A stretch of DNA of 64,000 nucleotides from Paenisporosarcina antarctica (GTDB lineage Bacteria > Bacillota > Bacilli > Bacillales_A > Planococcaceae), in assembly GCF_004367585.1 (NCBI RefSeq), contig NZ_CP038015.1, positions 62,001 to 126,000 on the forward strand, read 5' to 3'. Below the pieces are notes generated by a model, which saw only the letters and a list, made by a program, of their open reading frames with translations, ran no database searches and was not told the DNA's origin. The position numbers and the translations under genes were made by a program. Below, piece after piece: positions 11,491-35,637 of the stretch; within the stretch, counting starts at the first letter, position 1, and every line of letters begins with the position of its first letter.

Positions 11491-11540
11491 AAGGAAACCG
11501 TAGTGGTCTTAAAAATGAATACCTTGTTTTCCATAAAGAA

Positions 11541-11574
11541 AACGACCGAAATTGCTTCTTCGGTCGTTTTTTAC
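11541..11574 (+). terminator. Rho-independent terminator of the symporter operon
   Basis: AACGACCGAA...TTCGGTCGTT stem and TTTT tail. The same CGACCGAA/TTCGGTCG hairpin ends the two long direct repeats at 12648 and 23726. Confidence 0.88.
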
Positions 11575-11856
11575 TTTCTCTTTTACACTTCATAGAACCA
11601 TCCGTTTAAATCCATCTACGTATCGTTGTTAAAATGTTTATTTTGATCAAGTGTAACGGCGGCGGTAGTATTCAAACCTGTTAGACAATGGCCGATTACT
11701 TGCGCAATGAAGCGGGAGAAACCATTAATAGGCATATTTGTACGAGTTAAATCGTATCTTGATAAGAATGCATACCGGATGTTCTTTGCTTTCGTATGGA
11801 TATGTAATTATATAGTGGGAATTTTCCCTCAAATTAGTATTTTATGATAAATTTTC

Positions 11857-11880
11857 GGTATAATGAATATACCATATAAT
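11857..11880 (+). promoter_or_regulatory. Promoter region with GGTATA-N5-TATACC palindrome
   Basis: The inverted repeat GGTATA ATGAA TATACC covers TATAAT, a likely -10 box, just upstream of the gene at 11897. A regulator could block the promoter here. The 11491-11856 stretch before it has no gene. Confidence 0.45.
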
Positions 11881-11896
11881 GAGAGGGTTGATTTAC

Positions 11897-12331
11897 ATGT
11901 CTATTGCTAGTGAATCGTCTAAGGTGAATTTAGCCTTTTTAAAAAATGATTTAGGTTTAAATCAAGTTAGAAACACAACGCTTTTTCAAAAAGATGAATT
12001 CTTCATTATTTCACCATCCGTTCAAAATAAGAAGAATTGGTTTGATGTGAGTGAGTCAGTGATGGATAACTTCGATCCGGAGAATCAAGAAGGTTATTTA
12101 CTGATACGATTCCAAGATAAGTTTCTCATGGCTAAATTACAAGCATTTCAAAAGCAAATGATGATTAATGGTTCTCAGGCAAGTAGTAAATCAAAATCGC
12201 CTCATTGGAAATTCAAAGTAATAGAAGCAACGAGTCCGTATATTGTAAATATGGGAGATATCAATCTTAACTACCCGATACAGATGCCTAGTGAAAATCA
12301 ATTAAAGAGCTTTTTTAATAAGGAAAGCTAA
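11897..12331 (+). CDS. Hypothetical 144-residue protein
   Basis: I choose the ATG at 11897 because GAGAGGG lies 8-9 bases upstream; the ATG at 11879 overlaps that site. The protein is soluble, with no membrane segment and no motif I recognise. Its pattern of strands (EFFIISPSV, GYLLIRFQDKFLMAKL, HWKFKVIEA) suggests a compact alpha/beta protein. It lies between the symporter operon and the left repeat of the defence island, so it may be core genome or island edge. Confidence 0.65.
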   Translation: MSIASESSKVNLAFLKNDLGLNQVRNTTLFQKDEFFIISPSVQNKKNWFDVSESVMDNFDPENQEGYLLIRFQDKFLMAKLQAFQKQMMINGSQASSKSKSPHWKFKVIEATSPYIVNMGDINLNYPIQMPSENQLKSFFNKES

Positions 12332-12400
12332 ATTTTTGTTGAGTTCATGTAGAACGAGTCCATCCGAAATTTAAACATATATATGTGTGAAGAACGGACA

Positions 12401-12686
12401 GCTGGGCTTGTTTAAGGACTAAGGACTTTAAATGGGTTGTTTTGTAATGCTAGTTTGAAAGTATGCGAAAATAAGATGCCTGTGTGCTTTTGTGCACAGG
12501 CATCTTATTGGTACTAGATTATAAACAGACAGTACAGGTACTATTTATTGTCCAGGGTGCCGACTTCACTTGACGGACCTTACTTTTATTCATCCAGTTT
12601 AAACATTTGGGTTACTAAAGAATTGTCACCATGTATTCTTTAAAGGGAACGACCGAAGATTCAATTTCGGTCGTTTTTTACTTTCA
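12401..12686 (+). repeat. Left direct repeat flanking the Mza-like island
   Basis: This ~285-bp sequence matches 23514-23758 over its length at roughly four bases in five. Shared phrases include GGCTTGTTTAAGG, AGTTTGAAAGTATGC, CAGGGTGCC-ACTTCACTTGA, GGTTACTAAAGAAT-GTCACC and the final hairpin GACCGAAGAT-CAATTTCGGTCGTTTTTT. The left copy carries an extra ~45-bp insert holding a separate hairpin (12473-12506, AAGATGCCTGTG / CACAGGCATCTT). Both copies end in the same terminator. Confidence 0.88.
12473..12510 (+). terminator. Terminator-like hairpin inside the left repeat
   Basis: AAGATGCCTGTG...CACAGGCATCTT stem, absent from the right repeat copy. The T-tract is short (TTATT), so it may be a bidirectional hairpin. 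Confidence 0.6.
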
Positions 12687-12790
12687 TTTACAAGTAATCA
12701 TAAGTTTCTTATACAATCAAAAATCAGTTACTTTTATACAATATATCTTTTTAATACATATTTTATTAGTGGAATTGATTTCATATTGAG

Positions 12791-12837: not shown

Positions 12838-13110
12838 GTGAAAATTAACCATGTTAAACAGACTCTCATGTCTTATAATGGTCATAGTAACTTTCTCTAT
12901 TCTGTTAATGAGTGTGTCGAACTCTCATTATATAAGCTTGTAGTAGCAAGAACACAGAATTTAAAAATTGAAATACAAACAAAATATGCTAATAGCAAGG
13001 TTGCGTTTTCCTCTAATTTGAGTTATGCTGCATATAATAATGATGAGAATACATGTTCTGCATTAGGAAGGAAATACGCTGATGAAAGAAACAACATTCA
13101 ACTTAGTTGA
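12838..13110 (+). CDS. Possible small leader protein before the methyltransferase
   Basis: A 90-codon open frame starting GTG (or ATG 12868) whose end overlaps the methyltransferase start by 29 bases. There is no strong ribosome binding site and no recognisable motif. It is polar with no membrane segment. It may be a real small gene, for example a control protein, or only an open stretch of leader DNA. No helix-turn-helix is evident. Confidence 0.3.
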   Translation: MKINHVKQTLMSYNGHSNFLYSVNECVELSLYKLVVARTQNLKIEIQTKYANSKVAFSSNLSYAAYNNDENTCSALGRKYADERNNIQLS

Positions 13111-14788
13111 CCTTTTTGCAGGCGCTGGGGGATTAAGTATTGGTTTTACTCAAACTGGCAGATTTAATGTTATTGGTGCTGTTGAAATTAATGATGCGGC
13201 CAAGGAAACTTTTATTTATAACCATGGAAACAACAGAGATATCATCTTATCGGTTGATAATTCAGGCAGAAGTGATATAACTCAAATGGACTTTAATAGT
13301 TTTAATTTTGAAGCAGATAAAACCGTTGTAGTGGGTGGTCCGCCTTGTCAAGGTTTTTCAAACGCAAATCGTCAAAAAAATTATCTTATTTCAGGAAATA
13401 ATCAACTAGTAAAGGAATACGTTCGAGCAATAAGAGACATTAAACCGATAGCATTTCTGATGGAAAATGTAAAATCAATGAATTCCTCAGTCCATAAGTT
13501 TTTTGTAACAAAATCTGATACTAACAATTTGAATGATTTTAGTTCGGAAAAACATCTTGATCAAATCTCAAGTCAAACGAAAGAATCATTATACACAACA
13601 GATTTTATAACTTTATTAGAAACTGAGAATATTGCTTTAAATAATGTGGCTTCTAAATTTGTGGACATAAAAGATGTTCCCAAACCTATCGTAGAAGATC
13701 CGCAATTAATTATTAGACTTAGAACTATAGAAAGTAGATATAATAAAAGTGGATCTGTACTGTTGAAAACAAATAAAGAAAAACAAGAAGTAAGTAAGAT
13801 AATTGAGTTATTAAAAGAAAGAGTGAATGGTGATGCAGATATTAATTGTATGCTTAATGAAGCAATTGTTTCCCTTCAATTATTAATTAAGGACCCTACA
13901 AGCTATAACGAGCAAAAAAGTTATTCAATGGATTTCGTTGAATATAATCGCTTTTTAACACGTTGTCAGGAACTCCAGGACGAAAAAATTGATTGTGATA
14001 AATTTATATTTGAAAATGAAGAAAAGTATATTGTGAAAATTCAGGTTAAATCATATAACGTAGTTGAATATTTAACTAGTGTTTTTGAATATTATGGATA
14101 TAAAGTGGACAGTAGAGTACTTGATGCATCTAAATTTGGTGTTCCACAACGAAGAAAAAGATTCATGATGCTAGGAGTAAGAAAAACAAGACAATCAATA
14201 ATTCTTCCTCAAAAATTAACAAATAAAATCTTTACTGTAAAAGATGCCATAGAAGATTTGGAAGAAATTAAACCGCAACATGAACTAGAGAGTTATTGTT
14301 CAAGTAATTATGAAAATCATCAAATTCAAAGTGATTTAATTAAATATTATCGTAAAAATATTGATGAAACATTACTCTTTAACCATGTGAATACTAAGAG
14401 TACTGAATTAGTAAAAGCGCGTTTCAAACATATATTGGAAAAAGGCGGGAAAAACTTTCACAGTCTTCCAGAAGAATTAAAAAAGAGTTATCAAGACGCA
14501 TCCCGAACCCAAAATACGGTTTATTTAAGATTGAATTATGATGAACCTTCACCTACAGTAATAAATGTTCGGAAATCAATGTGGCAACATCCAAGCAAAG
14601 CGCGAGCTTTGAGTATAAGAGAAGCCGCAAGATTGCAATCGTTCCCAGATAACTTTGAGTTTATGGGTAGAAAAGATGAACAATACCAGCAAGTTGGGAA
14701 TGCTGTCCCACCTTTGTTAGCTAAAGCAGTTGCTGAACAAATGCTTAAATATTTAGATAGTATGACAAATCAGAAAGACAGTTGCTGA
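13082..14788 (+). CDS. DNA (cytosine-5) methyltransferase with large central insertion
   Basis: All key C5-methyltransferase motifs are present: motif I LVDLFAGAGG (8-17), motif IV GGPPCQGFSN with catalytic Cys89, motif VI ENV at 128-130, motif VIII FGVPQRRKR at 352-360, motif IX/TRD region, and the final QVGNAVPPLLAKAVAEQ. About 190 residues (131-320), mostly charged and helical, are inserted between motifs VI and VIII, much more than in simple Dcm enzymes. AGGAAGG lies 9-10 bases before the ATG. The gene has its own terminator, so it is transcribed apart from the four effector-like genes that follow. In Mza-type and MutL/Z1-linked restriction systems a C5 methyltransferase protects host DNA; the recognition site cannot be read from sequence. 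Confidence 0.95.
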   Translation: MKETTFNLVDLFAGAGGLSIGFTQTGRFNVIGAVEINDAAKETFIYNHGNNRDIILSVDNSGRSDITQMDFNSFNFEADKTVVVGGPPCQGFSNANRQKNYLISGNNQLVKEYVRAIRDIKPIAFLMENVKSMNSSVHKFFVTKSDTNNLNDFSSEKHLDQISSQTKESLYTTDFITLLETENIALNNVASKFVDIKDVPKPIVEDPQLIIRLRTIESRYNKSGSVLLKTNKEKQEVSKIIELLKERVNGDADINCMLNEAIVSLQLLIKDPTSYNEQKSYSMDFVEYNRFLTRCQELQDEKIDCDKFIFENEEKYIVKIQVKSYNVVEYLTSVFEYYGYKVDSRVLDASKFGVPQRRKRFMMLGVRKTRQSIILPQKLTNKIFTVKDAIEDLEEIKPQHELESYCSSNYENHQIQSDLIKYYRKNIDETLLFNHVNTKSTELVKARFKHILEKGGKNFHSLPEELKKSYQDASRTQNTVYLRLNYDEPSPTVINVRKSMWQHPSKARALSIREAARLQSFPDNFEFMGRKDEQYQQVGNAVPPLLAKAVAEQMLKYLDSMTNQKDSC

Positions 14789-14815
14789 TAAAAGTGACTG
14801 TCTTTTTGATTTGTC
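14764..14815 (+). terminator. Terminator overlapping the end of the methyltransferase gene
   Basis: A near-perfect 19-bp stem, GACAAATCAGAAAGACAGT against ACTGTCTTTTTGATTTGTC, whose left arm is inside the coding sequence. Confidence 0.8.
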
Positions 14816-15019
14816 AAATTCTCTTGTTAATTATTTAAAAAATGAAGATTCTTTTTACTTAATTAAGAAGGGTGGAATCTCTCAATCCCTGAGAGACCAG
14901 TAATAAAACAGAATTGTAAAATAAAACTTAATAAAGGAAGGAATGCTAAGTAAGTGGGGAAAATACTTTATGGAAATTGATTTTAACTCAGCCTAGCAAC
15001 GCGACCTGTAATTAATAGC

Positions 15020-15256
15020 ATTACGTTCACTCGGATAATGCTAAAGGTGCTAACGCAGACCCCCATAAATATAAAAAGTATGAAATTTTATAATGCAATT
15101 TGAATATAACCATGGAGGTGGATATATCCAAATTATTGACCATGGAATAAGAATGACTTATTTAGATATCCAAGTTGGTAAAGCTGAACGGAATAGCTTT
15201 TGTATAATATGGGTGGAGAACCTATACAAAAAATTGGATCAGAATTCGACATTTAA
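15020..15256 (+). pseudogene. Decayed fragment, possibly an M23-type peptidase
   Basis: Short readable pieces in shifting frames: one ending NADPHKYKKYEIL-stop, then NHGGGYIQIIDHGIRMTYL from 15108, then GGEPIQKIGSEF ending at 15256. GGGY-IIDHG---TYL followed by GEPI-KIGS resembles the order of an M23 LytM-type metallopeptidase core. No intact frame spans the region. The match is short, so this is tentative. It lies between the methyltransferase terminator and the operon. Confidence 0.35.
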
Positions 15257-15259
15257 TTT

Positions 15260-15304
15260 AAAGAGTATATGATGTATTGAAAGTTCATCATATACTCTTT
15301 TTTG
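15260..15304 (+). terminator. Strong terminator before the four-gene operon
   Basis: AAAGAGTATATGATG / CATCATATACTCTTT, a perfect 15-bp stem with T tail. It isolates the downstream operon from upstream transcription. Confidence 0.9.
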
Positions 15305-15358
15305 ATATTTTGATAAGCTTAACTTAACTTAACTAGAAATTATTGGGAGATGGTAGAT

Positions 15359-16840
15359 TTGTATACAATTCTTACACAGCCTTCAGCTGCTCCGGTTATT
15401 CAATCTTTAAGGAATATTGGATATAAAGCACAAACAGCTATTGCAGATATTGTCGATAATGGGATAGATGCAGAAGCAACTGATATTCATATTACTTTTA
15501 AATACGACAATGGTAATGGATATATAAAGATACAAGATAACGGCAAAGGTATGACAGATAAGGAATTACAAATTGCCATGACAATCGGTTCTAAGGATCC
15601 AAGAGAAGAACGCAAGCAACATGAGCTTGGACGTTTTGGAATGGGATTAAAAACAGGTTCGTTTTCTTTAGGTCAACGTCTAAGCGTACTGACGAAAATA
15701 GATGGAGTTATCTCTGAACGTTGCTGGGATTTAGAATATGTAAGCACACATAATGAGTGGTATCTGTTTAAAGAAATACCAAGTGAAGTTAAATGGAAAA
15801 TGGGAACAATCGATTCTGATAATGGGACAATTGTATTTATTGATAAGTTAGATAGATTTTGTGGATATGGGACAGAAAAAATCATTCAATTAAGTAGTTA
15901 TTACGCTAAGGTAGCACGTATTAGAAAATTTTTAGAAATGGTCTTTCAGGTCAAATTAGATAACGGTCTTAATATCTATATAAACGATAACTTTTTAGAT
16001 TCATGGGATCCGTTTTTATGTGAACACCCTAAAACTTTGGAAGGTGAAACGCAAATAATAAAGGTTAATAGAAAAAGAGTGAAAATAACCCCATATGTAT
16101 TACCTCATCCATCAACATTTAATGAAACTGAATATAAAATAGCGGGTGGTATCAAAGGATGGCGTGATCAACAGGGATTTTATATTTATCGAGAAGGAAG
16201 ACTTGTTAATTTTGGGGATTGGTTTGGTTTATTTACAAAAGATAGTTTCTCTGAATTAGTCCGAATTAAAATTGATTTTACAAATAATGCAGACGATGAT
16301 TGGAAAATTGATATAAAGAAATCAAGTGTTTCAATACCCGAAGATGCTAAAGAAAATCTAAAAGCAATTGGTAAATACTATAGGCAAGTTTCAAAGGAAA
16401 TAATGCTTTATAGAGCAAAACCTTCACGTACTCAGTCTAAAATGAAAGGTTCATTACATACTTGGGAATTAGCTAATGATGAAGCTGACAGTCCGTATCT
16501 ATTAAATCGTAATCATTCTATATTGACAAATATATTGAAAGATATTGATGAAGATATGCGTAGAAAATTTAACTTGTATTTAAAGTTAGTTGAATTAGGA
16601 TCACCTAATAATTTATTGCATTCTTCCAGTTTAGTGAAAAAAGAAAAGCAAGTACAAGAAGTGGATGAAAAAATAAAGTATTACATTATTGAACTATCAA
16701 AAACTTTAATAGATTCAAATGAAATAATAATCCTTGAAGAAATAGTGGATGCAATATCTCTATTCCCAGGATTTGAGTCTGTAGAAAGAACGACTATTAA
16801 AAATATATTAGAAAAGGATGTGTTAGTTAATGAACGGTGA
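15359..16840 (+). CDS. MutL/MORC-like GHKL ATPase of Mza-type defence system
   Basis: The N-terminal GHKL ATPase fold is clear. The N box is AIADIVDNGIDAEATDI (near residues 27-43), the G1 box is IQDNGKGM (58-65) and the G2 box is LGRFGMGLKTGSFSLGQ (90-106), as in HATPase_c_3 MORC/MutL relatives. The remaining ~350 residues are helical. GGGAG at 15345 touches the ATG at 15350, so the TTG at 15359, nine bases away, is the likelier start. It overlaps the Z1 gene by 11 bases. MutL-like ATPases joined to Z1 proteins, restriction-fold nucleases and C5 methyltransferases were described as restriction-like systems by Iyer, Abhiman and Aravind, and the Mza system is a tested anti-phage member. The role here is by homology. 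Confidence 0.92.
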   Translation: MYTILTQPSAAPVIQSLRNIGYKAQTAIADIVDNGIDAEATDIHITFKYDNGNGYIKIQDNGKGMTDKELQIAMTIGSKDPREERKQHELGRFGMGLKTGSFSLGQRLSVLTKIDGVISERCWDLEYVSTHNEWYLFKEIPSEVKWKMGTIDSDNGTIVFIDKLDRFCGYGTEKIIQLSSYYAKVARIRKFLEMVFQVKLDNGLNIYINDNFLDSWDPFLCEHPKTLEGETQIIKVNRKRVKITPYVLPHPSTFNETEYKIAGGIKGWRDQQGFYIYREGRLVNFGDWFGLFTKDSFSELVRIKIDFTNNADDDWKIDIKKSSVSIPEDAKENLKAIGKYYRQVSKEIMLYRAKPSRTQSKMKGSLHTWELANDEADSPYLLNRNHSILTNILKDIDEDMRRKFNLYLKLVELGSPNNLLHSSSLVKKEKQVQEVDEKIKYYIIELSKTLIDSNEIIILEEIVDAISLFPGFESVERTTIKNILEKDVLVNER

Positions 16841-19508
16841 GCTAAAAGATCGATATAACAGATCATTCAAAGACACTTATGATTTTTTCAAAAATAACGG
16901 ATTTCCCAATCCTTTCGAAAAAACTCAGGAAATGGTAGAAAGTAAGTTGCAAAAAGAATATGCAGCTATTAAGAAATCGGATTTAGAGAGTCTAGCATTA
17001 GAAATGTACGAAAAATATGAGACATCATTTACAATTCCTAAATCAAATACAATGAGAGGGGAAGGTTGTGGTAATTGGTTTGGAGAAACTACCCCAAGTT
17101 ATCGATACTATTGGCCTCGGTATAAGAGATATTTAGAAGAGTATAAAAAGTGGGAATTAGAGACTGTTGAATCTATAAATGAATCGACTAATGAAATTTT
17201 AAGGTCCGTTGGAGATCCCAATAATATAGAATCATTTGATGTAAGAGGATTAGTGCTCGGATATGTTCAATCAGGTAAGACAGCTAACTTTACAGGACTT
17301 ATTAATAAAGCGTTTGATGTAGGCTATAAATTAGTAATTGTATTAGCTGGTATGCATAATGATTTACGTTCACAAACGCAAATTCGTTTAGAAGAAGAAA
17401 TAGTAGGCACAATTGATAAAAATACGGATGAAAAAATTGGAGTTGCTCAAATAAGAAATGATGGAGAACTAGTGGTTACTTGGACAACTAAGGAGAAAGA
17501 TATTTCAACAGCGGAGTCTGGAAAAAGACAAAACTTTGGTGTGCCCAATTTGCTAGTAGTTAAAAAGAATAAAGATGTATTAGAATCACTAAAAGAGCTC
17601 TTATCACAAAGTATTCGCCTATCAAGTGAAAATGCAAATGTACCAGTTCTAATTATAGACGATGAAGCAGACCAAGCATCTATAGATACATCTAATCCAA
17701 ATAAAAATGAAGACCCTAAGACAATCAATCGTCTAATTCGTGAAATCTTGGAGTTGTTCAAAAGAAAATCATATGTAGGATATACAGCTACACCATTTGC
17801 CAATTTATTAATTCGAATGGATGCTGAACATGAATTTGCCGGAAGAGATTTATACCCAAAAGATTTTGTAATTGGGTTACCTAAACCTTTAGGATACTGT
17901 GGACCTGCAGAATATTTTAATGTAACAGGTTATGAAGAAGATAATAAACCATTATTTATTCGTCATTTAAAACAAGAAGACTTAGACTTATTTGATGGTA
18001 TGAAGAAAACTGTAGATGCTGATAAATTTATAAAAGTTCCCGAATCAATGAAAGAGTCAATTTTAGCTTTCCTTATTACTATAGCAGTACGTAATCTTCG
18101 TGGACAAAATGGGCAACATAATTCGATGCTTATCCATACTTCAAGATTTACAGATACACAAGGGGTTATGCAAGATGTAATTGAAAGGTATTACCGTGAG
18201 ATGTCGAATGATATTGTTTACAATGGGGATAGCAAATTTATTTCAGAGTTGGAAACCTTATATTTGAATGACTATGCGCCAATACAACAGTTGGTCTATT
18301 CCGATATTCCAGTTTTGGAGTGGAAAAAAGTATTGAAAGCAATTAAGAGCATAATTAGTGCTGTACATATAATGGAGATTAATGGTAGTAGTGGGCAAGC
18401 TTTAGAGTATCACAAATATAAAGAAGATGGACTAAACGTTATTGCTATTGGTGGTGACAAGTTGTCTCGAGGTTTAACCCTGGAAGGCTTAAGTGTTTCT
18501 TATTATTATCGTAATACGAATATGTACGATACTTTAATGCAAATGGGTCGTTGGTTCGGATTCCGAAATGGCTATATGGATTTATGTCGTATTTATACTT
18601 CTAATACAATTGCTGATAATTTTGAGCATATGGCTCAAGTAATGGTTGAGTTAAGACAAGAATTTGATTATCTTGCGAACAATAATCTTACACCTGAACA
18701 ATATGCAGTTAAAATGCTTGATCACAATAAAATGTCAGTAACAAGTTTAGCAAAAATGCGTTCAGTAGACCGTCTATTTAATTACAGTGGTACTATGCAA
18801 CAAACACGCATATTCGAAGCCCAAAAATCTGTTTTCGAAAAAAATATGAAAGCAACCGTTCAATTTATTGATTCAATAGTTGAGCCTTTTATCATTCAAT
18901 CAGGAGATACTACTTATCATATTGCTAGAAATGTACTAAGTGAGCAAGTAGTAAAATATTTAGAAGACTATGAAACTGCCTCAACTGTAAACAAAGTAGA
19001 TAGTAAAAAAATCGCGGAATATATTAAGCGATTAAACAGAGAAAATAAGCTACTAAATTTTAACGTAGCTGTAGTCAATGGTACAAAGAGCACATTAATG
19101 CGGAAAGATGTTGTAGCGCACGGAATAGAAAAGTTTCCGGTGAAATTAGGGAAAATAGATATAGAAAGTACAGTTATTCGTGCTACACAAAGAGGTGGAA
19201 ATCATGGAGTGAGTAAGGTAGATATTGGTGCGCTGGTGGCGGCTAAACAAGAATTTATAGATTTGAATGCTGCAACGCAAATTGAGCGAAATCAAAATAA
19301 TCCTTTGATACTTGTATATCCGTTACATCCAGAAGTAGGTGTATTTAAAAAGTTAGGACATAAATTTGATGATAATCTTGTGCCGATTGGACTAGCTTTC
19401 TCGTTCCCAAAAGTTTATGTGACAGATATTTATGAGGATGGAAGTGTAGTTGAAAAATTTGGGGATTATGTTGTAAATAAAACAGTAGCGCGAGGTAATA
19501 GTCAATGA
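16830..19508 (+). CDS. Z1 domain superfamily-2-like ATPase of Mza-type defence system
   Basis: The 892-residue protein has a Walker A motif GYVQSGKT at 144-151, a DEAD-like Walker B LIIDDEAD at 275-281, motif III YTATPFANLL near 320, and motifs V-VI IGGDKLSRGLTLEGL ... DTLMQMGRWFGFR with the arginine finger. These mark the Z1 family, helicase-like ATPases found with MutL-like and nuclease genes. It is the largest subunit and probably the motor that acts on phage DNA. Its start overlaps the upstream gene by 11 bases and its stop overlaps the next start by four bases, so dosage is tightly coupled. Confidence 0.95.
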   Translation: MNGELKDRYNRSFKDTYDFFKNNGFPNPFEKTQEMVESKLQKEYAAIKKSDLESLALEMYEKYETSFTIPKSNTMRGEGCGNWFGETTPSYRYYWPRYKRYLEEYKKWELETVESINESTNEILRSVGDPNNIESFDVRGLVLGYVQSGKTANFTGLINKAFDVGYKLVIVLAGMHNDLRSQTQIRLEEEIVGTIDKNTDEKIGVAQIRNDGELVVTWTTKEKDISTAESGKRQNFGVPNLLVVKKNKDVLESLKELLSQSIRLSSENANVPVLIIDDEADQASIDTSNPNKNEDPKTINRLIREILELFKRKSYVGYTATPFANLLIRMDAEHEFAGRDLYPKDFVIGLPKPLGYCGPAEYFNVTGYEEDNKPLFIRHLKQEDLDLFDGMKKTVDADKFIKVPESMKESILAFLITIAVRNLRGQNGQHNSMLIHTSRFTDTQGVMQDVIERYYREMSNDIVYNGDSKFISELETLYLNDYAPIQQLVYSDIPVLEWKKVLKAIKSIISAVHIMEINGSSGQALEYHKYKEDGLNVIAIGGDKLSRGLTLEGLSVSYYYRNTNMYDTLMQMGRWFGFRNGYMDLCRIYTSNTIADNFEHMAQVMVELRQEFDYLANNNLTPEQYAVKMLDHNKMSVTSLAKMRSVDRLFNYSGTMQQTRIFEAQKSVFEKNMKATVQFIDSIVEPFIIQSGDTTYHIARNVLSEQVVKYLEDYETASTVNKVDSKKIAEYIKRLNRENKLLNFNVAVVNGTKSTLMRKDVVAHGIEKFPVKLGKIDIESTVIRATQRGGNHGVSKVDIGALVAAKQEFIDLNAATQIERNQNNPLILVYPLHPEVGVFKKLGHKFDDNLVPIGLAFSFPKVYVTDIYEDGSVVEKFGDYVVNKTVARGNSQ

Positions 19509-20524
19509 TAAATATTACAGAGGCTTTTAGAAACCTAATTGAGCATTCCGAGCAAGAAAATACGAAAGAAGTATATAAACTTAAAACACTTTTTTTTCAA
19601 CAGCCGTTTACCATTATAGGCATTGATTTGATAACAATGGAAAGAAGACTTTATATTGATATTACAGAGGAAAATTGGGATGAAGAGCAGTTGAAATCCT
19701 TTCCAAAATGGAAAGGGTTGTCTGTTAAAAAGGAATTTTTCGGTAAAATTGGTCCGCTAAAAGAAAAGGATTTCCTGATTATTGCTCAAGAAACTGAGAA
19801 AAGTGAAGAAATTTTTGAAAAGATATTACAAAGTTTAGTGGATCGTATTTTTGAAAAAGAAGATCGAAACTTATTTTCTATTATATATGAGATATTAGAT
19901 CGTTGGCATAACTTCTTTCGATATAAAAATAATAAAAAACTTTCAACAGAAGAACAGATGGGGGTATTTGGGGAATTGTATTATATTCATAATTGGTTGA
20001 ATAAATTCCCAGAAGAACCGCCACTAATTGTGAATTATTGGAAGGGTCCTACAAGACATAGAATTGATTTTGTGAAAAATAATATAGGTGTAGAAATTAA
20101 AACAATGTCTCCTAAATTACATGAAGAAATCCGAATTTCTAGCGAAAAACAATTAGAGTTAAGTACTGTTATAAAAAAGATTTATCTTTATATACTGAAG
20201 ATTGAAGATACACAATCAGATGGACAAACTATCCAAGATTTAATAGATTCGATTAGAATTAAGTTGTCAGATAGAGCGCCATCAAGTTTAATGAGATTCA
20301 ATGATTTATTAATGGAACTATATATTGTAGATGGAATATACAATGATATTTTCTTTTATGTACACAACGAGGAAACATACGAAGTAACTAATCAATTTCC
20401 AAGAATAACAAGTGAAGACTTGCCGATAGGTGTATCAAATGTATCGTATTCCATCGATTTATCTCATTGCAAAAACTTTAAAATTGAAACAGAGAAAGCT
20501 TATTATTTAAGTAAAGAAGGTTAA
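19505..20524 (+). CDS. PD-(D/E)XK family (DUF4420-like) protein of Mza-type system
   Basis: The 339-residue protein contains a restriction-endonuclease-fold signature: Glu157 in GVFGELYY, then Asp188 in HRIDF and the Glu197-x-Lys199 of GVEIKT. This fits the PD-(D/E)XK motif proteins (DUF4420-like) that follow Z1 genes. It is the likely nuclease component. ATGA overlap joins it to the Z1 gene and it ends four bases before the AIPR gene. Cleavage has not been shown for this sequence; the motif spacing is as expected. Confidence 0.88.
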   Translation: MINITEAFRNLIEHSEQENTKEVYKLKTLFFQQPFTIIGIDLITMERRLYIDITEENWDEEQLKSFPKWKGLSVKKEFFGKIGPLKEKDFLIIAQETEKSEEIFEKILQSLVDRIFEKEDRNLFSIIYEILDRWHNFFRYKNNKKLSTEEQMGVFGELYYIHNWLNKFPEEPPLIVNYWKGPTRHRIDFVKNNIGVEIKTMSPKLHEEIRISSEKQLELSTVIKKIYLYILKIEDTQSDGQTIQDLIDSIRIKLSDRAPSSLMRFNDLLMELYIVDGIYNDIFFYVHNEETYEVTNQFPRITSEDLPIGVSNVSYSIDLSHCKNFKIETEKAYYLSKEG

Positions 20525-20528
20525 TTAA

Positions 20529-22358
20529 ATGAGAGAAGATAAAAAGAAACTGGATTTTCTAAATGAATTTATTGACTCAGTAGAAACTAAGGGAAGTACA
20601 ATTGGTAGTAGAGAAACGCCCTTTTTTGCAGAAATGTTTGCATATATGGACCAGGAAGACGAACCATCAATTATTTTTCCTTATAACAAGAAAAATATTA
20701 AATTGAATGGTTATATCTATCAAGAAGAAACAGGTATACTCAGTTTGTATATAGTGGATTACGATAATGATTTTGAAGAAGGTACTTTACCTGAAATAAA
20801 TAAAACTGTTTTAACAGAAGTGGCAAATAAGGCGAAACGTTTTTATACAAATGCAGAAACCGTGTTAGCTAATGCAGATCGTTCTCTAGAATTCTATGAT
20901 TTAGCAAAACTTATAATTGAGAAAAAAAATGAAATTGATGAAGTGGATATATATGTATTAACAAGCAAATTTTATTTAACGAATAAACCTATTGAGATTA
21001 ACATTCCCGGTGTACAAACTGTTAACATACATATTTGGGACATGGATCGAATATATCGATTATCGGAAGCTGAACAGAGTATTCGTGATTTTGATATTGA
21101 ATTTGAAAAAGATTATAATCAAGCAATTGAAATGATGTATGTTCCGAAAAATATTCATTCTAAAGGGAATTATAATTTCGATTGTTATATTGGATACATA
21201 CCTGCAAAATTACTAGCTGAACTTTATGATGACTGGGGTCCCAAGTTAGTCGAACGAAATGTTCGTTCTTTTTTACAAGCACGTGGCGGAACAAATAAAG
21301 GTATCCGTGACACATTGAAAGATTCAGTACAACGCGAAATGTTCGTAGCCTATAATAATGGGATTTCAAGTGTCGCAAAAGATGGTGACATTGAACAGAT
21401 TGGCAATACGAATTTGTATCGCATTACACGTATTACAAGCTGGCAGATTGTCAACGGGGGTCAAACTACTGCTTCAATTCATCAGGCATATAAGAGTGGT
21501 GTAAATTTAGATGGAGTATATGTACAATCAAAGTTAACAATTATTAAAGTTGCTGCTGAAGATGAGCAAGATCGTCATCTACTAGAAGACGAAATGGTAT
21601 CAAAAATTTCTGAGTTTGCAAATACACAGAATAAAATTAATAAATCAGATTTGCTTGCAAACACTCGATTTATGTCTGATATTGAAAAATATTCTCGTAG
21701 TTTATGGATTCCTAGTCTTGATAATCGTAAAGAAGAATCTAAGTGGTATTTTGAAAGAGCACGAGGTCAGTATATGGTTGATATTGGAAGGCGTATCACG
21801 GGGAAGGAACAAAATGCATTCAGAAAAGTATTTCCTAAAGAGAATGTGATTACTAAAGTTGAGTTAGCGAAGTACTTTATGTCATGGGAAGGCCATCCGC
21901 ATGTTTCCAGTAAAGGTGGCGAAGAAGCATTCAAACAATTTATGAATTTAAATAGTCAATATTGGAAGCAGACGACCGATGAAGATGGTCGATCGGTGAG
22001 TATTAAAAGTATTGACAGTGATTACTATAAACTTTTAATAGCACGTAAAATCACAAATTCTTATGTTACAAAAATTGTGACAGAAATGAATTTGAAAGGC
22101 TATCGAGCAAACGTAATTTATTATACAATAGCAATGCTAGGTTATCTTTACGGTAAAGATATTGATTTAATAGAAGTTTGGGAAAAACAATCGCTTACTA
22201 ATAGATGGGATAGCATAATAAAAACGATTGCTCAAAATGCATTGAATTATTTACGAGACTCAGCCGGTGATCGTAATGTTACTCAATGGGCGAAACAATC
22301 GGCTTGTTGGGAAGAATTCAAAGAAGAGTCAGCTGCTGTGTTGAGTCAGTTGATCTAA
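20529..22358 (+). CDS. AIPR (abortive infection phage resistance) family protein
   Basis: The 609-residue protein carries the AIPR core: VERNVRSFLQARG near 240, NNGISSVA near 275, the IVNGGQTTASIH signature near 307-318 and ISEFANTQNKINKSDLLAN near 358-376. AIPR proteins were first named from lactococcal abortive infection loci and are the last gene of Mza-type operons. It probably acts with the Z1 and nuclease partners. The start has only a weak site within the end of the preceding gene, consistent with translational coupling. A helicase remnant follows. Confidence 0.93.
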   Translation: MREDKKKLDFLNEFIDSVETKGSTIGSRETPFFAEMFAYMDQEDEPSIIFPYNKKNIKLNGYIYQEETGILSLYIVDYDNDFEEGTLPEINKTVLTEVANKAKRFYTNAETVLANADRSLEFYDLAKLIIEKKNEIDEVDIYVLTSKFYLTNKPIEINIPGVQTVNIHIWDMDRIYRLSEAEQSIRDFDIEFEKDYNQAIEMMYVPKNIHSKGNYNFDCYIGYIPAKLLAELYDDWGPKLVERNVRSFLQARGGTNKGIRDTLKDSVQREMFVAYNNGISSVAKDGDIEQIGNTNLYRITRITSWQIVNGGQTTASIHQAYKSGVNLDGVYVQSKLTIIKVAAEDEQDRHLLEDEMVSKISEFANTQNKINKSDLLANTRFMSDIEKYSRSLWIPSLDNRKEESKWYFERARGQYMVDIGRRITGKEQNAFRKVFPKENVITKVELAKYFMSWEGHPHVSSKGGEEAFKQFMNLNSQYWKQTTDEDGRSVSIKSIDSDYYKLLIARKITNSYVTKIVTEMNLKGYRANVIYYTIAMLGYLYGKDIDLIEVWEKQSLTNRWDSIIKTIAQNALNYLRDSAGDRNVTQWAKQSACWEEFKEESAAVLSQLI

Positions 22359-22374
22359 TAATATAGTGTTTTTC

Positions 22375-22692
22375 ATTTAGCAAGCTCTTGTGAATTTGGC
22401 AAGGATGTCATTGTCGGAATTTTGGCCGACACGGGTAGAAATTGTTATGCATTAAGAAATGTCATCGTCTCAAAAGGACTTGAATTTGATGTTGGAATTA
22501 TTATTGGATTAGATGAAAAATACCCGACTATGAAGTATTGTTCAGAAGAAGAGATTCACGAGCAAATTGAAATTAGCAGAAGCTTCTCTATGTTTCCATG
22601 ACTCGTGCAAAAGAAGTCCTATTCTGATTTATAAAGGTAATCCGTCACTATATATCGGTGAGACGGATAATACTTTGTATGAGATTGATTAG
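22375..22692 (+). pseudogene. C-terminal remnant of a UvrD/PcrA-type helicase
   Basis: One frame reads VIVSKGLEFDVGIIIGL, which is helicase motif V of superfamily 1. About 100 bases on, a shifted frame reads KLLYVSMTRAKEVLF, the motif VI arginine-finger segment, then the frame breaks again before YKGNPSLYIGE and a stop at 22692. The 5' part of the gene is missing. It is the leftover of a helicase gene displaced when the island formed or decayed. Confidence 0.8.
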
Positions 22693-23158: not shown

Positions 23159-23485
23159 TTGGAAGATAAAATAGTAAAAAGAGCAATTGAATCGGCAGGT
23201 TGTTGGTTTGTGGGATATTATGCCGCGCAGGTATTTGATAATTATAACCGATTAGAAACGGACCGTATGTATAAAAAAATTTTTATACAAAATATTTTTG
23301 AAAAAGATCAAAGAGATCGAACGATTGGAGGTACAGGGACAAGAGTAAATTCGTTAATGAAGATTGTCCGAATGAATAAGGTTCCTGAAGCTATGAAGTA
23401 TTTAATTCAGTCAAAAAGATTGAATCACGAAGACCCGAAGGCCGTGGAAATGGCAAAGGACATGATTAGAAAGCTAAATTTATAG
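23159..23485 (+). CDS. Hypothetical 108-residue protein at the island edge
   Basis: The TTG start is supported by GAGGTG 7-8 bases upstream; no ATG in frame fits. The protein is helical and basic, with no membrane segment and no known motif (segments IESAGCWFVGYYAAQ, GGTGTRVNSLMKIVR, MAKDMIRKLNL). It lies just inside the right repeat and has a candidate operator pair upstream, so it may be an accessory gene of the island. Function unknown. Confidence 0.65.
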   Translation: MEDKIVKRAIESAGCWFVGYYAAQVFDNYNRLETDRMYKKIFIQNIFEKDQRDRTIGGTGTRVNSLMKIVRMNKVPEAMKYLIQSKRLNHEDPKAVEMAKDMIRKLNL

Positions 23486-23513
23486 TGATGATTCTCCTTA
23501 TCCTATACTAATA

Positions 23514-23758
23514 GCTTGGCTTGTTTAAGGGGCAATTAGGACTTTAAGTGAGTTGCGCAATGCCAGTTTGAAAGTATGCAAAGTACTAGCTTTTAAACAG
23601 GCAGTAAAGGTACTACTTTTTTTTCAGGGTGCCAACTTCACTTGATGTAGTTTACTTTTATGCATCCATTCTAAACTGCATTTTTATGGTTACTAAAGAA
23701 TCGTCACCTTGTATTCTATAAAGGGAATGACCGAAGATACAATTTCGGTCGTTTTTTT
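23514..23758 (+). repeat. Right direct repeat flanking the Mza-like island
   Basis: Second copy of the 12401-12686 sequence, lacking the ~45-bp hairpin insert, ending in the same terminator (23726-23758, ATGACCGAA...TTCGGTCGT and T run). Confidence 0.88.
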
Positions 23759-23834
23759 CTTTCTTTATTGAGTTATTTATGTAACATTTATATCTGGAAA
23801 TAGATTGTGCGTTACTTCTTTAGACTGAGAAAGT

Positions 23835-24965
23835 TCATTCTTTCTCTATAAACTCAAGTTCTTTTGTATGTTCATTATAAATATACTTAATTAATCTTAA
23901 ACTAGACCAATGCATTGTAACGGCTGGATGCCGACCTTTAACAAAGGTGCGTTTACCTGCCTCATTTCTTAATCTGACTACTTCCTCTGGGAAGTCTTGA
24001 GCTACTACAAAAGCCTCAATCATCGAATAATCACCAAAGCTATATTCGTGATTTATCCAGTCCACATATTTCATGAGTTGGTTAATCACTTCTTTATCAG
24101 CAACTTCTCTTTTGATTTCTATAGTTAGGTATTTCGAAATTGTTGTAAATGAAGGTATAAACCTGTATCCGAATATATCCATCTTGTCCATATAATGAAC
24201 TGGCTTAAAAGGCGAAGCGACAACTTGATGCGATAAATAATCCCAATCACCGAATATATTATTGGTGGTATTTTTTATATAGTCTATTATTCCTGCTTCA
24301 ATTGCCATTTCGTGTTTCATCTTTGATCCATTTGCAGCTAAGGCTAAGATATTATTCGCGTTCACTTTATAGTTGATGTCTATTAACGACTTCACCCGGT
24401 TATGTAATTTATCTGAATAAGAAAAGATGTTTTTTGGATTAGCAATTTCATTTTCATTTGTTTTTAAAATTATGTCGCATAATGCTTTGTTTTCAACATC
24501 ATCTATCTTAATAAAAGATAATCTCGATAGTACACGTAGCATTTTGAAAGCTCGTGGATTTGAAGATAATACATCGTCCATGTCAATGCCGGTCTTAAAA
24601 AAGTATGGAGCATTTTCAAAAGTACATAAAAATCGATTGCCTAGGTTAAACGTGGACTTATTCAGTATCATTTTATCTTTTAGTGCTGGAAACTTTGCTG
24701 TAAGTGGAATGTCTGCGCCGGGAAAGTTTAAATGCTTACAATCACCATTAATATTAACAAGTTTTCCAACACCATATATTTTTCTTTTTATGAAAAAGTA
24801 AACATTATCGCCCTCAGACATTGATAGATAATCAGTGAAAGTACCCTCGTGATGTATTAACCATTGGTTTTTTAGAGGAACATTTAGGTTCGTGCTATAA
24901 ACCCCGTTTAAAATCAGTTCATTTAAAGATTCAATATTATCAAGTGTAAAGATATATCCTGCCAT
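23835..24965 (-). CDS. Putative nuclease-like third protein of the Sau3AI-like cassette
   Basis: A 376-residue protein transcribed with the restriction enzyme gene (12 bases apart). The N-terminal part (GDNVYFFIKRKIYGVGKLVNI near 50-70) resembles a PUA/EVE-like beta fold. Near the C-terminus YLTIEIKREVADKE with a following QLMKYVDWI looks like the E-x-K and helix of a PD-(D/E)XK nuclease. I do not recognise a named family. Other Sau3AI-type loci, such as one in Listeria monocytogenes, also have a third gene with the methyltransferase and endonuclease; equivalence is inference. Confidence 0.7.
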   Translation of the reverse strand: MAGYIFTLDNIESLNELILNGVYSTNLNVPLKNQWLIHHEGTFTDYLSMSEGDNVYFFIKRKIYGVGKLVNINGDCKHLNFPGADIPLTAKFPALKDKMILNKSTFNLGNRFLCTFENAPYFFKTGIDMDDVLSSNPRAFKMLRVLSRLSFIKIDDVENKALCDIILKTNENEIANPKNIFSYSDKLHNRVKSLIDINYKVNANNILALAANGSKMKHEMAIEAGIIDYIKNTTNNIFGDWDYLSHQVVASPFKPVHYMDKMDIFGYRFIPSFTTISKYLTIEIKREVADKEVINQLMKYVDWINHEYSFGDYSMIEAFVVAQDFPEEVVRLRNEAGKRTFVKGRHPAVTMHWSSLRLIKYIYNEHTKELEFIEKE

Positions 24966-24977
24966 TTCTTCAACTCC

Positions 24978-26354
24978 CTAATTAATTATATTTGCTACAT
25001 AATCTTTATCCAGCCAAAAAGCTTGCTTAGCAATCATTTGGCCATCAGGTAAAGGAGTTTTATCTTGCCCATTTCTCCCTTTAGGGCGTATATGACAGAG
25101 ACCATTGGAACCGGGGGAGGGTAAATTATTTCTGGCAACTACAGTATTTCCCTTTGAAATCATATTAATTTGAACCCCAAATAAAAGCTGAAGTTGGAGA
25201 TTTTGATAGAATTCCATTAATTGTGATTCAATTTCTTGAATAGGCATATTCCACAATTTAATACCTATAAAAAATAACTCTCGATTTTTATTTTCTCGTT
25301 CCGTTTCTCTGAATTCAAAAATAACAAATAAAAATTTTGTTTGTTCAAAATGATTTTTTAGCCAACTTACATCCCATTCTTCAGTAACCCATTCCATAAA
25401 GTTCATATTCTTAAATGACATATGCTCACGGGGTACACCATTAGGTTCAAGTCGTATCGTTTTAAATTGAATGTTTGCTTTAGAGAATTCTTCAATGTCG
25501 TCTAATTTAGTTCCTTTAATTCCAAGTAATGCACTTATAAAATTAGGAACGAAACTTTTTGAATTATTGATTGAGATTCCATTTTCATATGCAATTTGAG
25601 TAAGGGGTTTACCGATATAAGGTAGAAATCTATCGTGAAGAATTTCTTCTAGAGTTTTACTTTGTAGTTCTTGGCTATTAGTAATTGAGACCATGTCTTT
25701 ATTAGATAGAATTTGTCTGGCCACGCCAGACATAAAACTAGCCTTTAAACTATAAGCTCTTTGCATGGCATAAATAGGACTAAATGGTTGAGTTCTTAAT
25801 GAATCTTTGTTTTTCCCTTTTGTACATGCGCCTAAATAAATGGTATCGGCCTCAGAAAGATTATGTGCTTTACCAGCTTTAATTTTACTGGTTATGAATA
25901 ACCAATCGTTCTTAATAATTTGTAGATCCTCCTCGCTAAAAGTTAAAAGGTGACTTTTTAGCACTTGATATTCAGAACGGTGAACTTCAGGAATCCATTG
26001 ATAGAACATGAGTAAAATCTTTTGGTTCTTTGTCCAAAAACTTGATGTCTCAAATGTAGTTAATACTTCTTTCTGGTAGTTGATAATATTTAAGACTAAT
26101 CGTTCTTTAGCTGAAATCGTTTTATTCTTGTTAAGCTTCAACGGAGTAACTTTTAGCTCAATGCCTAATTCAGCAAAGTCCGCTTCAGACTTAGAATTCA
26201 CTTCATAACCAAAGAAACTTTCTTCGATGATTTGTCCTAGATGACCTTTCGATTTCTCGTTTTCAACACGACCTGTTCTATCAATCTCACCGAAAGTTTT
26301 TCCTTCAGCTTCTTTTGCTTTATAAAGCAACTCCGCTTCCGTTTTATACAACAT
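24978..26354 (-). CDS. Sau3AI-like type II restriction endonuclease (GATC)
   Basis: The N-terminal domain carries the MutH/Sau3AI core: KGHLGQIIEESFFGYE followed by SEADFAELGIELKVTP, giving the catalytic Asp-(x)6-Glu-x-Lys pattern. The C-terminal half matches the tandem MutH-like arrangement of Sau3AI, where the second copy binds DNA allosterically. Length (458-461) is near that of Sau3AI. Enzymes of this family cut 5' of GATC. I choose the ATG at 26354; a GTG at 26363 is also possible. It has its own upstream region because a terminator separates it from the methyltransferase gene. Specificity is by family, not proven. Confidence 0.9.
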   Translation of the reverse strand: MLYKTEAELLYKAKEAEGKTFGEIDRTGRVENEKSKGHLGQIIEESFFGYEVNSKSEADFAELGIELKVTPLKLNKNKTISAKERLVLNIINYQKEVLTTFETSSFWTKNQKILLMFYQWIPEVHRSEYQVLKSHLLTFSEEDLQIIKNDWLFITSKIKAGKAHNLSEADTIYLGACTKGKNKDSLRTQPFSPIYAMQRAYSLKASFMSGVARQILSNKDMVSITNSQELQSKTLEEILHDRFLPYIGKPLTQIAYENGISINNSKSFVPNFISALLGIKGTKLDDIEEFSKANIQFKTIRLEPNGVPREHMSFKNMNFMEWVTEEWDVSWLKNHFEQTKFLFVIFEFRETERENKNRELFFIGIKLWNMPIQEIESQLMEFYQNLQLQLLFGVQINMISKGNTVVARNNLPSPGSNGLCHIRPKGRNGQDKTPLPDGQMIAKQAFWLDKDYVANIIN

Positions 26355-26405
26355 ATGTATCACTCACTTCTTGGATAGTAATTGTATAAATTTTACCATA
26401 AATAG

Positions 26406-26437
26406 AAAAAAGCCGATACATAAAGTATCAGCTTTGC
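26406..26437 (-). terminator. Terminator of the Sau3AI-type methyltransferase gene
   Basis: On the minus strand AAGCTGATAC-TTTAT-GTATCGGCTT then TTTTC. The left arm overlaps the TGA stop of the methyltransferase. Confidence 0.82.
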
Positions 26438-27687
26438 AATGCCAGTTTTAATTGAACATCGGTAAGAATATTTGTTTTTTCAATTTCTTCAATTCGTAAG
26501 CCTAGTCTCTCTATTAATCCAACTACCAAGGCATTACCCATACAAAAATATCTCATACGGTCTGACATTGAGCTCGTCCAATTATCGTCGAATCCATTAA
26601 GACGTTCGCATTCTAGAGGTGTTAAGAAACGTTTTCGACCATTCACTTCAATAATGTGAGTGCTTCGATTTGTAGAACCTTCACTTGTTAGCATCGTTCT
26701 ACCGGGTTTGTCCAAATCGTCTACAGGTGACATTCCACCTTCGGAAAATTGATAGACATGTCCATCGGCCGTTTTCCGTTCAATTTTCTTTGGTCCACGA
26801 AGATATGAAAATTTCTCACTTGTCGCTTCGGATAAGTAGAATTTTTCATCCACTTCAGTTTCAGCGATAAGAATATTACGCAAAGTTACTGGCTTTTCTT
26901 CTTTTGGGATGACTTGTGTGGTGAAAACTTGCCCTTCCTTCATATAGCCGGCAGTATGAAATCCAAATGAGAAATTATCTGATAGGGATACTATATCATT
27001 CGGTAAGGCGACAGAAGTTATTCTATCTTTATATGGTTCAAACTCAACTGGAAAAGGTTTAGCAAAGAAACCTTCATTAAAAACAATTTGATCTTCAGAG
27101 TACTTACTTTGGAATTGGTCAAAAGCGATGCCATTTTTATATGCAAAGATAAAGACGCGTCGTCGTCTTTGAGCAAAGCCATAATCAGCAGCATTTATAA
27201 CTCGCCATTCAACGGTGTAATTTAAATCTCTAAAAGTTGCCAACATAACCGCAAAATCACGTCCGCGCTGTGATGACGGTGATTTTAAAAGACGGTCTAC
27301 ATTTTCTAAAAGAACATACTTAGGTTGTGTATTTTCGATTACTCTCTTAATTTCCCAAAATAAGACTCCTTTTTTACCTTGGAGCCCTTTCTCTCCAGAA
27401 AGAGTGCGTGCTACTGAGTAGTCTTGGCATGGAAAACCACCTACTACTAGATTTGGCTCTAAATCTACAAATGTTTCGTCTGAAACTTTTGTTATATCTT
27501 CATTCGAATGTATTCCATTATTAAATTTTTCTACATAACAATCGAAAGCATCTTGAGCTTTTCGAGCAGGTTCCCATTGGTTACCCCAAACTATTTTAAA
27601 TAAATCGGGGTTCGCTTTCTCGAGACCTAAACGAAAGCCACCGACACCAGCAAATAATTCAATTACATTAATTTTAGAATTTTGCAT
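26428..27687 (-). CDS. C5-cytosine DNA methyltransferase of the Sau3AI-like system
   Basis: The 419-residue protein has motif I VIELFAGVGGFRLGLE (8-23), motif IV GGFPCQDYSVAR with catalytic Cys87, motif VI LLENVDRLL, motif VIII YGFAQRRRRVFIF, and the C-terminal LTPLECERLNGF (motif IX) and MGNALVVGLIERL (motif X). Its partner is the Sau3AI-like endonuclease just downstream, so it should methylate the cytosine of GATC. Transcription is from the 27688-27917 region. Its terminator separates it from the endonuclease gene, allowing protective methylation to be made first. Confidence 0.93.
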   Translation of the reverse strand: MQNSKINVIELFAGVGGFRLGLEKANPDLFKIVWGNQWEPARKAQDAFDCYVEKFNNGIHSNEDITKVSDETFVDLEPNLVVGGFPCQDYSVARTLSGEKGLQGKKGVLFWEIKRVIENTQPKYVLLENVDRLLKSPSSQRGRDFAVMLATFRDLNYTVEWRVINAADYGFAQRRRRVFIFAYKNGIAFDQFQSKYSEDQIVFNEGFFAKPFPVEFEPYKDRITSVALPNDIVSLSDNFSFGFHTAGYMKEGQVFTTQVIPKEEKPVTLRNILIAETEVDEKFYLSEATSEKFSYLRGPKKIERKTADGHVYQFSEGGMSPVDDLDKPGRTMLTSEGSTNRSTHIIEVNGRKRFLTPLECERLNGFDDNWTSSMSDRMRYFCMGNALVVGLIERLGLRIEEIEKTNILTDVQLKLALQS

Positions 27688-30440: not shown

Positions 30441-30554
30441 CTTTACAAAGAAAGAGAACTTCCCTTAACTCTACTTTAAGCACACCTAGCTATGTTTACA
30501 TTTATTCCTAAAAATAACTTGACTTCCTCTTTTCATTTTGATAAATTCAAATAC

Positions 30555-35582: not shown

Positions 35583-35637
35583 ATAGTTGATACTGTATGG
35601 AATATCCTATTTGCACCTTGAACCTTATGAAATCTCT

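What the first reader, a model, noticed from the sequence alone, without database searches (positions are those of the whole stretch)
13082..22358. Mza-type defence system: C5 methyltransferase plus MutL-like, Z1, PD-(D/E)XK and AIPR genes
Directly seen: intact GHKL, Walker A/B, E-D-ExK and AIPR motifs in four coupled genes (overlaps of 11 and 4 bases, then a 4-base gap), preceded by a C5 methyltransferase. From known families: MutL-like/Z1/C5-MTase operons were described as restriction-like systems and the Mza set is anti-phage. Inference: the methyltransferase protects host DNA and the four-protein machine attacks unmodified or incoming DNA. Unusual points are the ~190-residue insert in the methyltransferase, no Vsr gene, and the methyltransferase being on a separate transcript.
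Basis: partly seen in the sequence, partly recalled or inferred. Interest (0 to 1): 0.8.

Follow-up and report, generated by a model that had tools for sequence, protein, structure and literature searches.

The report
Restriction system guarded by swapped methyltransferase
This is a known kind of bacterial anti-virus restriction system (a DNA-marking enzyme plus a four-protein attack machine), but here the marking enzyme comes from a different lineage than the attack machine, and DNA scars of the exchange are still visible.

Summary
In detail: five intact genes at the stated coordinates, with overlaps of 11 and 4 nt and a 4-nt gap. The four-gene block (MORC/MutL-like ATPase, Z1 helicase, DUF4420 PD-(D/E)XK nuclease, AIPR) keeps order and strand in all 79 complete loci of 81 examined. 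It is Mza-like, not Mza: MzaA, a sigma factor, is absent, and all four proteins score far below the MzaB-E equivalog cut-offs. The best match is the "Type II" putative system of Miller 2022 and the MORC/Z1 operons of Iyer 2008. The methyltransferase insert is not odd: all 23 close Bacillota sequences measured, window included, have one. What is new is the junction. Trees place the methyltransferase with Priestia koreensis and one unnamed relative, but the attack block with genome G031; the alternatives are rejected. The 561-nt gap holds two relics: a P. koreensis-like mutL start and the 3' end of a G031-like methyltransferase. So the block's own methyltransferase was lost and a foreign one now sits in its place, the only C5 enzyme found in the genome besides a Sau3AI-type one. 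Related methyltransferases also sit beside other effector modules, which suggests interchangeable guards sharing one mark. Activity is untested.

The parts
13082..14788 (+). C5-cytosine methyltransferase (568 aa) with ~190-residue mostly helical insert between motifs VI and VIII; lineage of P. koreensis (L053) and unnamed G098, foreign to the block downstream
   Evidence: PF00145 210.5 bits; tree and AU test; AF2 model pLDDT 86.6
14968..15173 (+). relic of the start of another mutL/MORC gene, frames broken, nearest to L053
   Evidence: blastn E 3e-11 to L053 8396-8610; blastx 63 % over 27 aa, E 1.3e-5; 61.6 bits vs maximum 41.8 in 100 shuffles
15200..15256 (+). relic of the 3' end (about 19 codons with the stop) of the block's former methyltransferase, nearest to G031; similarity runs on through the intergenic hairpin into mutL
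   Evidence: blastn E 7e-13 to G031 joined piece 12132-12249; 66.2 bits vs maximum 37.2 in 100 shuffles
15260..15305 (+). hairpin followed by T-run between the methyltransferase relic and mutL, also in G031 at the same place; probable terminator
   Evidence: read by eye; not listed by the terminator scan, whose loop limit it exceeds
15350..16840 (+). MORC-type GHKL ATPase (MzaB-like, 496 aa)
   Evidence: PF13589 110.3 bits; solved relatives MORC2/3/4
16830..19508 (+). Z1-domain SF2 ATPase/helicase (MzaC-like, 892 aa) with Walker A GYVQSGKT, DDEAD and DTLMQMGRWFG
   Evidence: PF10593 256.7 bits; 152 of 152 conserved columns
19505..20524 (+). DUF4420 PD-(D/E)XK nuclease (MzaD-like, 339 aa), D188, E197-x-K199
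   Evidence: PF14390 176.5 bits; D188, E197, K199 conserved
20529..22358 (+). AIPR protein (MzaE-like, 609 aa)
   Evidence: PF10592 256.8 bits, PF22879 71.9 bits; AF2 model pLDDT 85.5, no PDB fold match at E<=0.001
12381..12700 (+). left copy of a ~290-nt direct repeat ending in a terminator, bracketing methyltransferase + block
   Evidence: one copy seen beside the same exonuclease gene in same-genus genome G073 before that contig ends
23501..23780 (+). right copy of the direct repeat
   Evidence: 79-84 % identity to the left copy in two pieces; 83-91 % in ungapped parts
11879..12331 (+). 150-aa protein related to the N-terminal part of McrB-like AAA_5 proteins near such methyltransferases, and to a lone gene upstream of G098's methyltransferase; possible accessory
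   Evidence: tblastn E 3.6e-29 (L131), 8e-9 (L118), 2e-6 (L133)

Best explanation
A restriction-like anti-phage system in which a stand-alone C5 methyltransferase marks the host's DNA at one fixed site, and a MORC ATPase, a Z1 translocase, a PD-(D/E)XK nuclease and AIPR attack DNA lacking the mark. By analogy with CglI/NgoAVII, the Z1 protein burns ATP to move along unmarked DNA and licenses the nuclease; the MORC protein probably clamps or loops DNA; the role of AIPR is unknown. At this locus the block's original methyltransferase was replaced by one from another lineage of the same kind of system (most simply, two tandem systems fused by one deletion). That could survive, if the block is active, only if the newcomer protects the same site. 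Shown here: gene content, conservation, the two ancestries, the scar. Inferred: the enzymatic steps, the shared target, the activity of the system.
For: Families and conserved motifs in place. Fixed block in 79 of 79 complete loci; C5 methyltransferase of at least 480 aa in the fetched stretch of 62 of 81 loci, within 700 nt of the block in 43 of those 62. Incongruent trees: methyltransferase window+L053+G098 100/99, window+G031 rejected (p-AU 2.9e-61); block window+G031 SH-aLRT 100, window+L053 rejected (p 6e-16). Two relics in the gap, each matching the lineage the trees predict. Second half of the target-recognition region conserved (58 % mean pairwise identity; insert 25 %) over 26 methyltransferases with various neighbours. 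One other C5 methyltransferase found in the genome, that beside the Sau3AI-type endonuclease. Vsr beside 35 of 81 loci suggests that 5mC is made. Z1 precedent: ATP-dependent cleavage by CglI/NgoAVII (passages of PMC4267653).
Against: No activity data. Which protein reads the DNA sequence is unknown. The first half of the target-recognition region (373-430) is only 32 % identical between window and G031, so the targets could differ. Blocks L043 and L104 have no C5 methyltransferase in their full 10-kb flanks, though both genomes have one elsewhere; a high background (10 of 14 control genomes have one) makes that weak. pN/pS between window and G031 is 0.17-0.29 for the block genes and 0.48 for the methyltransferase, but dS is saturated, so a recent loss of function in the window is not excluded.
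Confidence: 0.68

Rival explanations
1. The block is an independent, phage-triggered abortive system of the Mza type that ignores DNA methylation; the methyltransferase is a defence-island neighbour.
For: The validated anti-phage Mza set is named without a methyltransferase (the original paper is recalled, not seen); L043 and L104 have none in their full flanks.
Against: Long C5 methyltransferase with 62 of 81 blocks, 35 of the 46 MzaA-bearing ones among them; in L147, L148 and L229 its ORF overlaps the end of AIPR as last gene of the run.
Confidence: 0.2
2. The methyltransferase is a built-in subunit of the attack complex, docking through its insert and directing cleavage as in Type I/ISP enzymes.
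For: Insert present in all 23 measured members of this lineage and confidently folded; it is the most variable part.
Against: A cross-lineage partner here, with 27 % insert identity to G031; kin of this methyltransferase beside quite different effectors; a hairpin with T-run between methyltransferase and mutL in the seven gaps printed (G031, L038, L041, L046, L049, L051, L053, by eye).
Confidence: 0.12
3. The locus is decaying: after the swap the block is silent or mismatched and kept only for now.
For: Relics and repeats around the locus, no Vsr.
Against: All five ORFs open, conserved residues in place.
Confidence: 0.15

Closest known systems
'Type II' putative defence system of Miller et al. 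2022 (PMC9523054, one section read)
   Same: Z1 protein, PD-(D/E)XK protein, C5 methyltransferase and AIPR, associated with a MORC protein; low similarity to MzaBCDE; MzaA present only in a few
MORC/Z1 operons of Iyer, Abhiman and Aravind 2008 (PMC2292703, abstract and parts 1-2 of 4 read)
   Same: MORC with SF2 helicase bearing DThhQXuRhFG, RE-fold E-D-ExK protein, cytosine methylase, AIPR, sometimes Vsr
   Different: No Vsr here; methyltransferase of another lineage
Mza (MzaABCDE)
   Same: Four homologues in order B-C-D-E
   Different: No MzaA; below all four equivalog cut-offs; linked C5 methyltransferase
CglI/NgoAVII restriction systems (PMC4267653, passages read)
   Same: C5 methyltransferase plus Z1-type ATPase plus separate nuclease
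   Different: Their nuclease is PLD+B3; only three genes, no MORC or AIPR

Membership tests
Mza (MzaABCDE) | MzaA sigma factor | tested here: not met
   46 MzaA-like proteins of related loci against the window by tblastn, E<=0.001: none (window only, rest of the genome not searched). The cluster was named from two members, NF041931.2 at 224.8 and 487 of 800 bits
Mza (MzaABCDE) | MzaB-E at NCBIfam equivalog level | tested here: not met
   276.7/850, 560.9/1500, 85.7/420, 303.7/1050 bits; the cut-offs are strict, as related MzaA-like proteins miss theirs too
Mza (MzaABCDE) | homologous B-C-D-E genes in order | tested here: met
Mza (MzaABCDE) | anti-phage activity | not testable with these tools
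   needs plating
Miller 2022 Type II | Z1 + PD-(D/E)XK + C5 methyltransferase core with AIPR | tested here: met
Miller 2022 Type II | associated putative transcriptional regulator | tested here: inconclusive
   none recognised beside the block; small ORFs 11879-12331, 12838-13110 and 23159-23485 unassigned by Pfam
Iyer 2008 MORC/Z1 operon | MORC S5 motif GhXhhpXXRhl | tested here: met
   GFYIYREGRLV at 276-286 (motif; G276, Y278, Y280, R281, R284 conserved)
Iyer 2008 MORC/Z1 operon | helicase motif DThhQXuRhFG | tested here: met
   DTLMQMGRWFG at 567-577
CglI/NgoAVII | PLD+B3 nuclease | tested here: not met
   nuclease is DUF4420 PD-(D/E)XK

The most novel reading that the evidence does not exclude
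This insert-bearing C5 methyltransferase is a shared, exchangeable guard: one mark protects the host from several unrelated attack modules (MORC-Z1-PD-AIPR; Z1 plus three unknown genes plus PD; M33ABC; McrBC-like AAA_5-DUF2357), which plug in beside it and can be swapped because all check the same site. The window is a guard swap caught by its scar, and Sporosarcina globispora DSM 4 (L044) carries the block, M33ABC and the start of the McrBC-like pair around one such enzyme.
Probability: 0.35. Interest if true: 0.72.

Novelty: new member of a known kind. Interest (0 to 1): 0.5.

Why it matters
The scar is a natural complementation test: it predicts that a methyltransferase of one lineage protects against the attack machine of another, so the marked site and the recognised site should be one and conserved. 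That makes the target and the self/non-self rule of the uncharacterised MORC/Z1/AIPR systems directly testable, and offers a simple rule (one mark, many attackers) for how some defence islands grow.

Tried and rejected
Mza membership in the strict sense. Insert as an oddity of this gene: rejected, 206-232 residues ENV-to-QxRxR in 23 of 23 close Bacillota rows; the motif search failed (None) for part of the other rows, whose found values are mostly 56-82 (34-128 in all). Vsr in the genome or MzaA in the window: none. AIPR by fold: no PDB match at E<=0.001; function open. The methyltransferase model matched DNMT1/MET1, HaeIII and other C5 enzymes, which says nothing on the insert. Solved relatives by sequence: none for Z1 and AIPR at E<=0.01 and PD at E<=1. 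My early reading of a UvrD-like remnant after AIPR (22362-22595) found no support. Any C5 methyltransferase in nine genomes without a long one nearby: 8 of 9, but 10 of 14 controls too, so uninformative; a search of eight genomes with the window's enzyme itself found it too narrow a query for this. Mobile carriage: one record of 72,556 plasmid records at E<=1e-60 (a 2.6-Mb one) and one partial match in 50,697 phage records. The full-length enzyme is rare: 5 of 261 genomes of the order. Prior art on guard sharing or the swap: (two phrasings, open-licence papers only) listed nothing fitting in title or abstract; some searches sought the system itself. Promoter scan: fewer hits than in shuffles.

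Rows left out: the methyltransferase alignments dropped rows under 480 aa; the block tree left out L051 and L055 (cut or broken genes); A1 used 40 of 67 listed AIPR rows and A2 41 of 56 listed methyltransferases; one search excluded 3, 3, 4 and 1 rows by length.
Full report
WHAT IS THERE. PADLOC and NCBIfam models MzaB, C, D and E match the last four, but at 276.7/850, 560.9/1500, 85.7/420 and 303.7/1050 bits against NCBIfam's equivalog cut-offs. The GHKL protein's solved relatives (9 sequences at E<=0.01) are all MORC2/3/4, and it holds the MORC S5 motif given by Iyer 2008 (GFYIYREGRLV); the Z1 protein holds their helicase motif (DTLMQMGRWFG).

HOW REAL. One scan of genome contigs with the Z1 protein kept the best 80 loci of 576 that encode a relative. 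Of window + 80, 79 hold all four genes, always on one strand in the same order. A C5 methyltransferase of at least 480 aa lies in the fetched stretch of 62 of 81, only a shorter one in 11, none in 8 (6 of these 8 are cut-short stretches); 43 of the 62 are within 700 nt of the block. An MzaA-like sigma factor is beside 46 of 81 and Vsr beside 35 of 81 (each cluster named from two members); among the 24 Bacillota-type rows (window, L038-L060) MzaA is beside 0 and Vsr beside 7. The window has neither, and its genome has no Vsr.

TWO ANCESTRIES. The window's methyltransferase is instead closest to G098 (60 %) and to Priestia koreensis L053 (58-59 %), whose own block is far off (37-52 %). Trees agree: window+L053+G098 methyltransferases form a clade at 100/99 and window+G031 is rejected at p-AU 2.9e-61 (26 rows); in the joined block tree (23 rows, quick method, no bootstrap) window+G031 has SH-aLRT 100 and window+L053 is rejected at p 6e-16.

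THE SCAR. The 561-nt gap between methyltransferase and MORC gene explains this. Window 14968-15173 matches the start of L053's mutL gene (blastn E 3e-11, frames broken; 63 % over 27 residues, E 1.3e-5). From 15200 on, the window matches G031 without a break from the last ~19 codons of G031's methyltransferase, through an intergenic hairpin, into mutL and on. In 100 dinucleotide-keeping shuffles each, the best scores were 41.8 and 37.2 bits against 61.6 and 66.2 observed. So the order is: guard 1, broken attacker 1, end of guard 2, intact attacker 2. The simplest history (inference) is two tandem systems joined by one deletion; Neobacillus drentensis L052 shows two blocks on either side of one methyltransferase. 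The only other C5 methyltransferase found in the window's genome is that beside the Sau3AI-type endonuclease, so guard 1 should serve attacker 2 if attacker 2 is active.

THE INSERT AND THE TARGET. All 23 measured close Bacillota enzymes (window, 21 loci, G031) have 206-232 residues between ENV and QxRxR. In the model the insert is a confident, mostly helical domain. Over 26 methyltransferases the insert is the most variable part (25 % mean pairwise identity), and the second half of the target-recognition region, whose limits I set from recalled C5 motifs, is conserved (58 %; motifs I-VI 62 %, IX-X 72 %), with NH..T, NFH.L and RTQNT in at least 25 of 26 rows; the first half is less so (33 %). 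This favours one shared target but does not prove it.

OTHER PARTNERS. Kin of this methyltransferase sit beside other modules. G098: Z1, three genes without Pfam match and a DUF4420 protein, without MORC or AIPR, which resembles Miller's Type I. G205: no Z1 match at E<=0.001 in the genome, but M33ABC on one side and an AAA_5 + DUF2357/PDDEXK_7 pair on the other. Viral contig L151: M33ABC. G031 and G234: the block plus AAA_5 + DUF2357. Five further loci looked at hold just the block with the methyltransferase (L147, L148, L149, L152, L229), and L150 none of the modules sought. Of the 22 Bacillota loci with a long methyltransferase (window and 21), 9 have another recognisable piece within 7 kb: M33ABC in L044, L049, L054, L055; AAA_5-DUF2357 in L047 and L050; a second block in L052; a second Z1 gene in L048 and L059. 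In L049 and L055 M33ABC has its own short methyltransferase beside it, and L055's block is broken. L044 and L047/L050 match at 91 % over block, Vsr and methyltransferase, and again (92-94 %) at the AAA_5 start, but L044 has 4.5 kb with M33ABC in between. As a control, strong DUF2357 genes (E<1e-60) are in 12 of 261 genomes of the order, yet in 3 of the 5 with a full-length match to the methyltransferase, each within about 10 kb of it (hypergeometric p 0.0007), and in 5 of the 22 genomes with a Z1 match or such a methyltransferase (p 0.0014) (groups chosen after seeing the data). General clustering of defence genes could explain part of this. The window has no recognisable second module; its 150-aa gene at 11879-12331 resembles the N-terminal part of those AAA_5 proteins.

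SETTING. Methyltransferase and block lie between two copies of a ~290-nt repeat (12381-12700, 23501-23780); with the left copy as query the genome shows besides these only a piece at about 11503-11581 and a 35-nt match. In G073 of the same genus the same exonuclease gene is followed directly by one copy, the likely empty site, though that contig ends about 515 nt beyond the gene and the rest of G073 was not searched for the repeat.

MECHANISM. Inferred: mark by the methyltransferase; unmarked DNA engaged by the complex; Z1 as ATP-driven motor as in CglI/NgoAVII (passages of PMC4267653); MORC as looping engine (Iyer 2008's proposal); PD-(D/E)XK as cutter; AIPR unknown, with no PDB fold match.

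VERDICT. A known kind of system; new are the documented guard swap and, more tentatively, the shared-guard pattern. I found no report of either, but the two searches aimed at it were narrow and cover open-licence papers only.

Noticed in passing
24978-26363 (-) and 26428-27687 (-): Sau3AI-family restriction endonuclease (555.7 bits, cut-off 300) with a second C5 methyltransferase beside it: a separate restriction-modification unit right of the island.
   Followed up: partly
23835-24965 (-): 376-aa protein before the Sau3AI unit with only a sub-threshold NucS_C match; no match in the loci compared.
   Followed up: no
11503-11581, 12381-12700, 23501-23780: Diverged direct repeats ending in a terminator, delimiting a small gene and then the methyltransferase + block; one copy at the same site in G073. 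Possible module-by-module insertion at one site.
   Followed up: partly
30553-30759 (+): T-box leader (Rfam, 122.8 bits).
   Followed up: no
L135 28-162, window 30313-30449 and 35421-35583: A dispersed element of up to ~140 nt shared between G073 and two places in the window; not identified, and no Rfam match there at gathering level.
   Followed up: no
L044 18439-21931, L151 3099-6885, L132 10746-14223: PADLOC candidate M33ABC sits beside the insert-type methyltransferase in several genomes and in a viral contig: possibly a restriction partner.
   Followed up: partly
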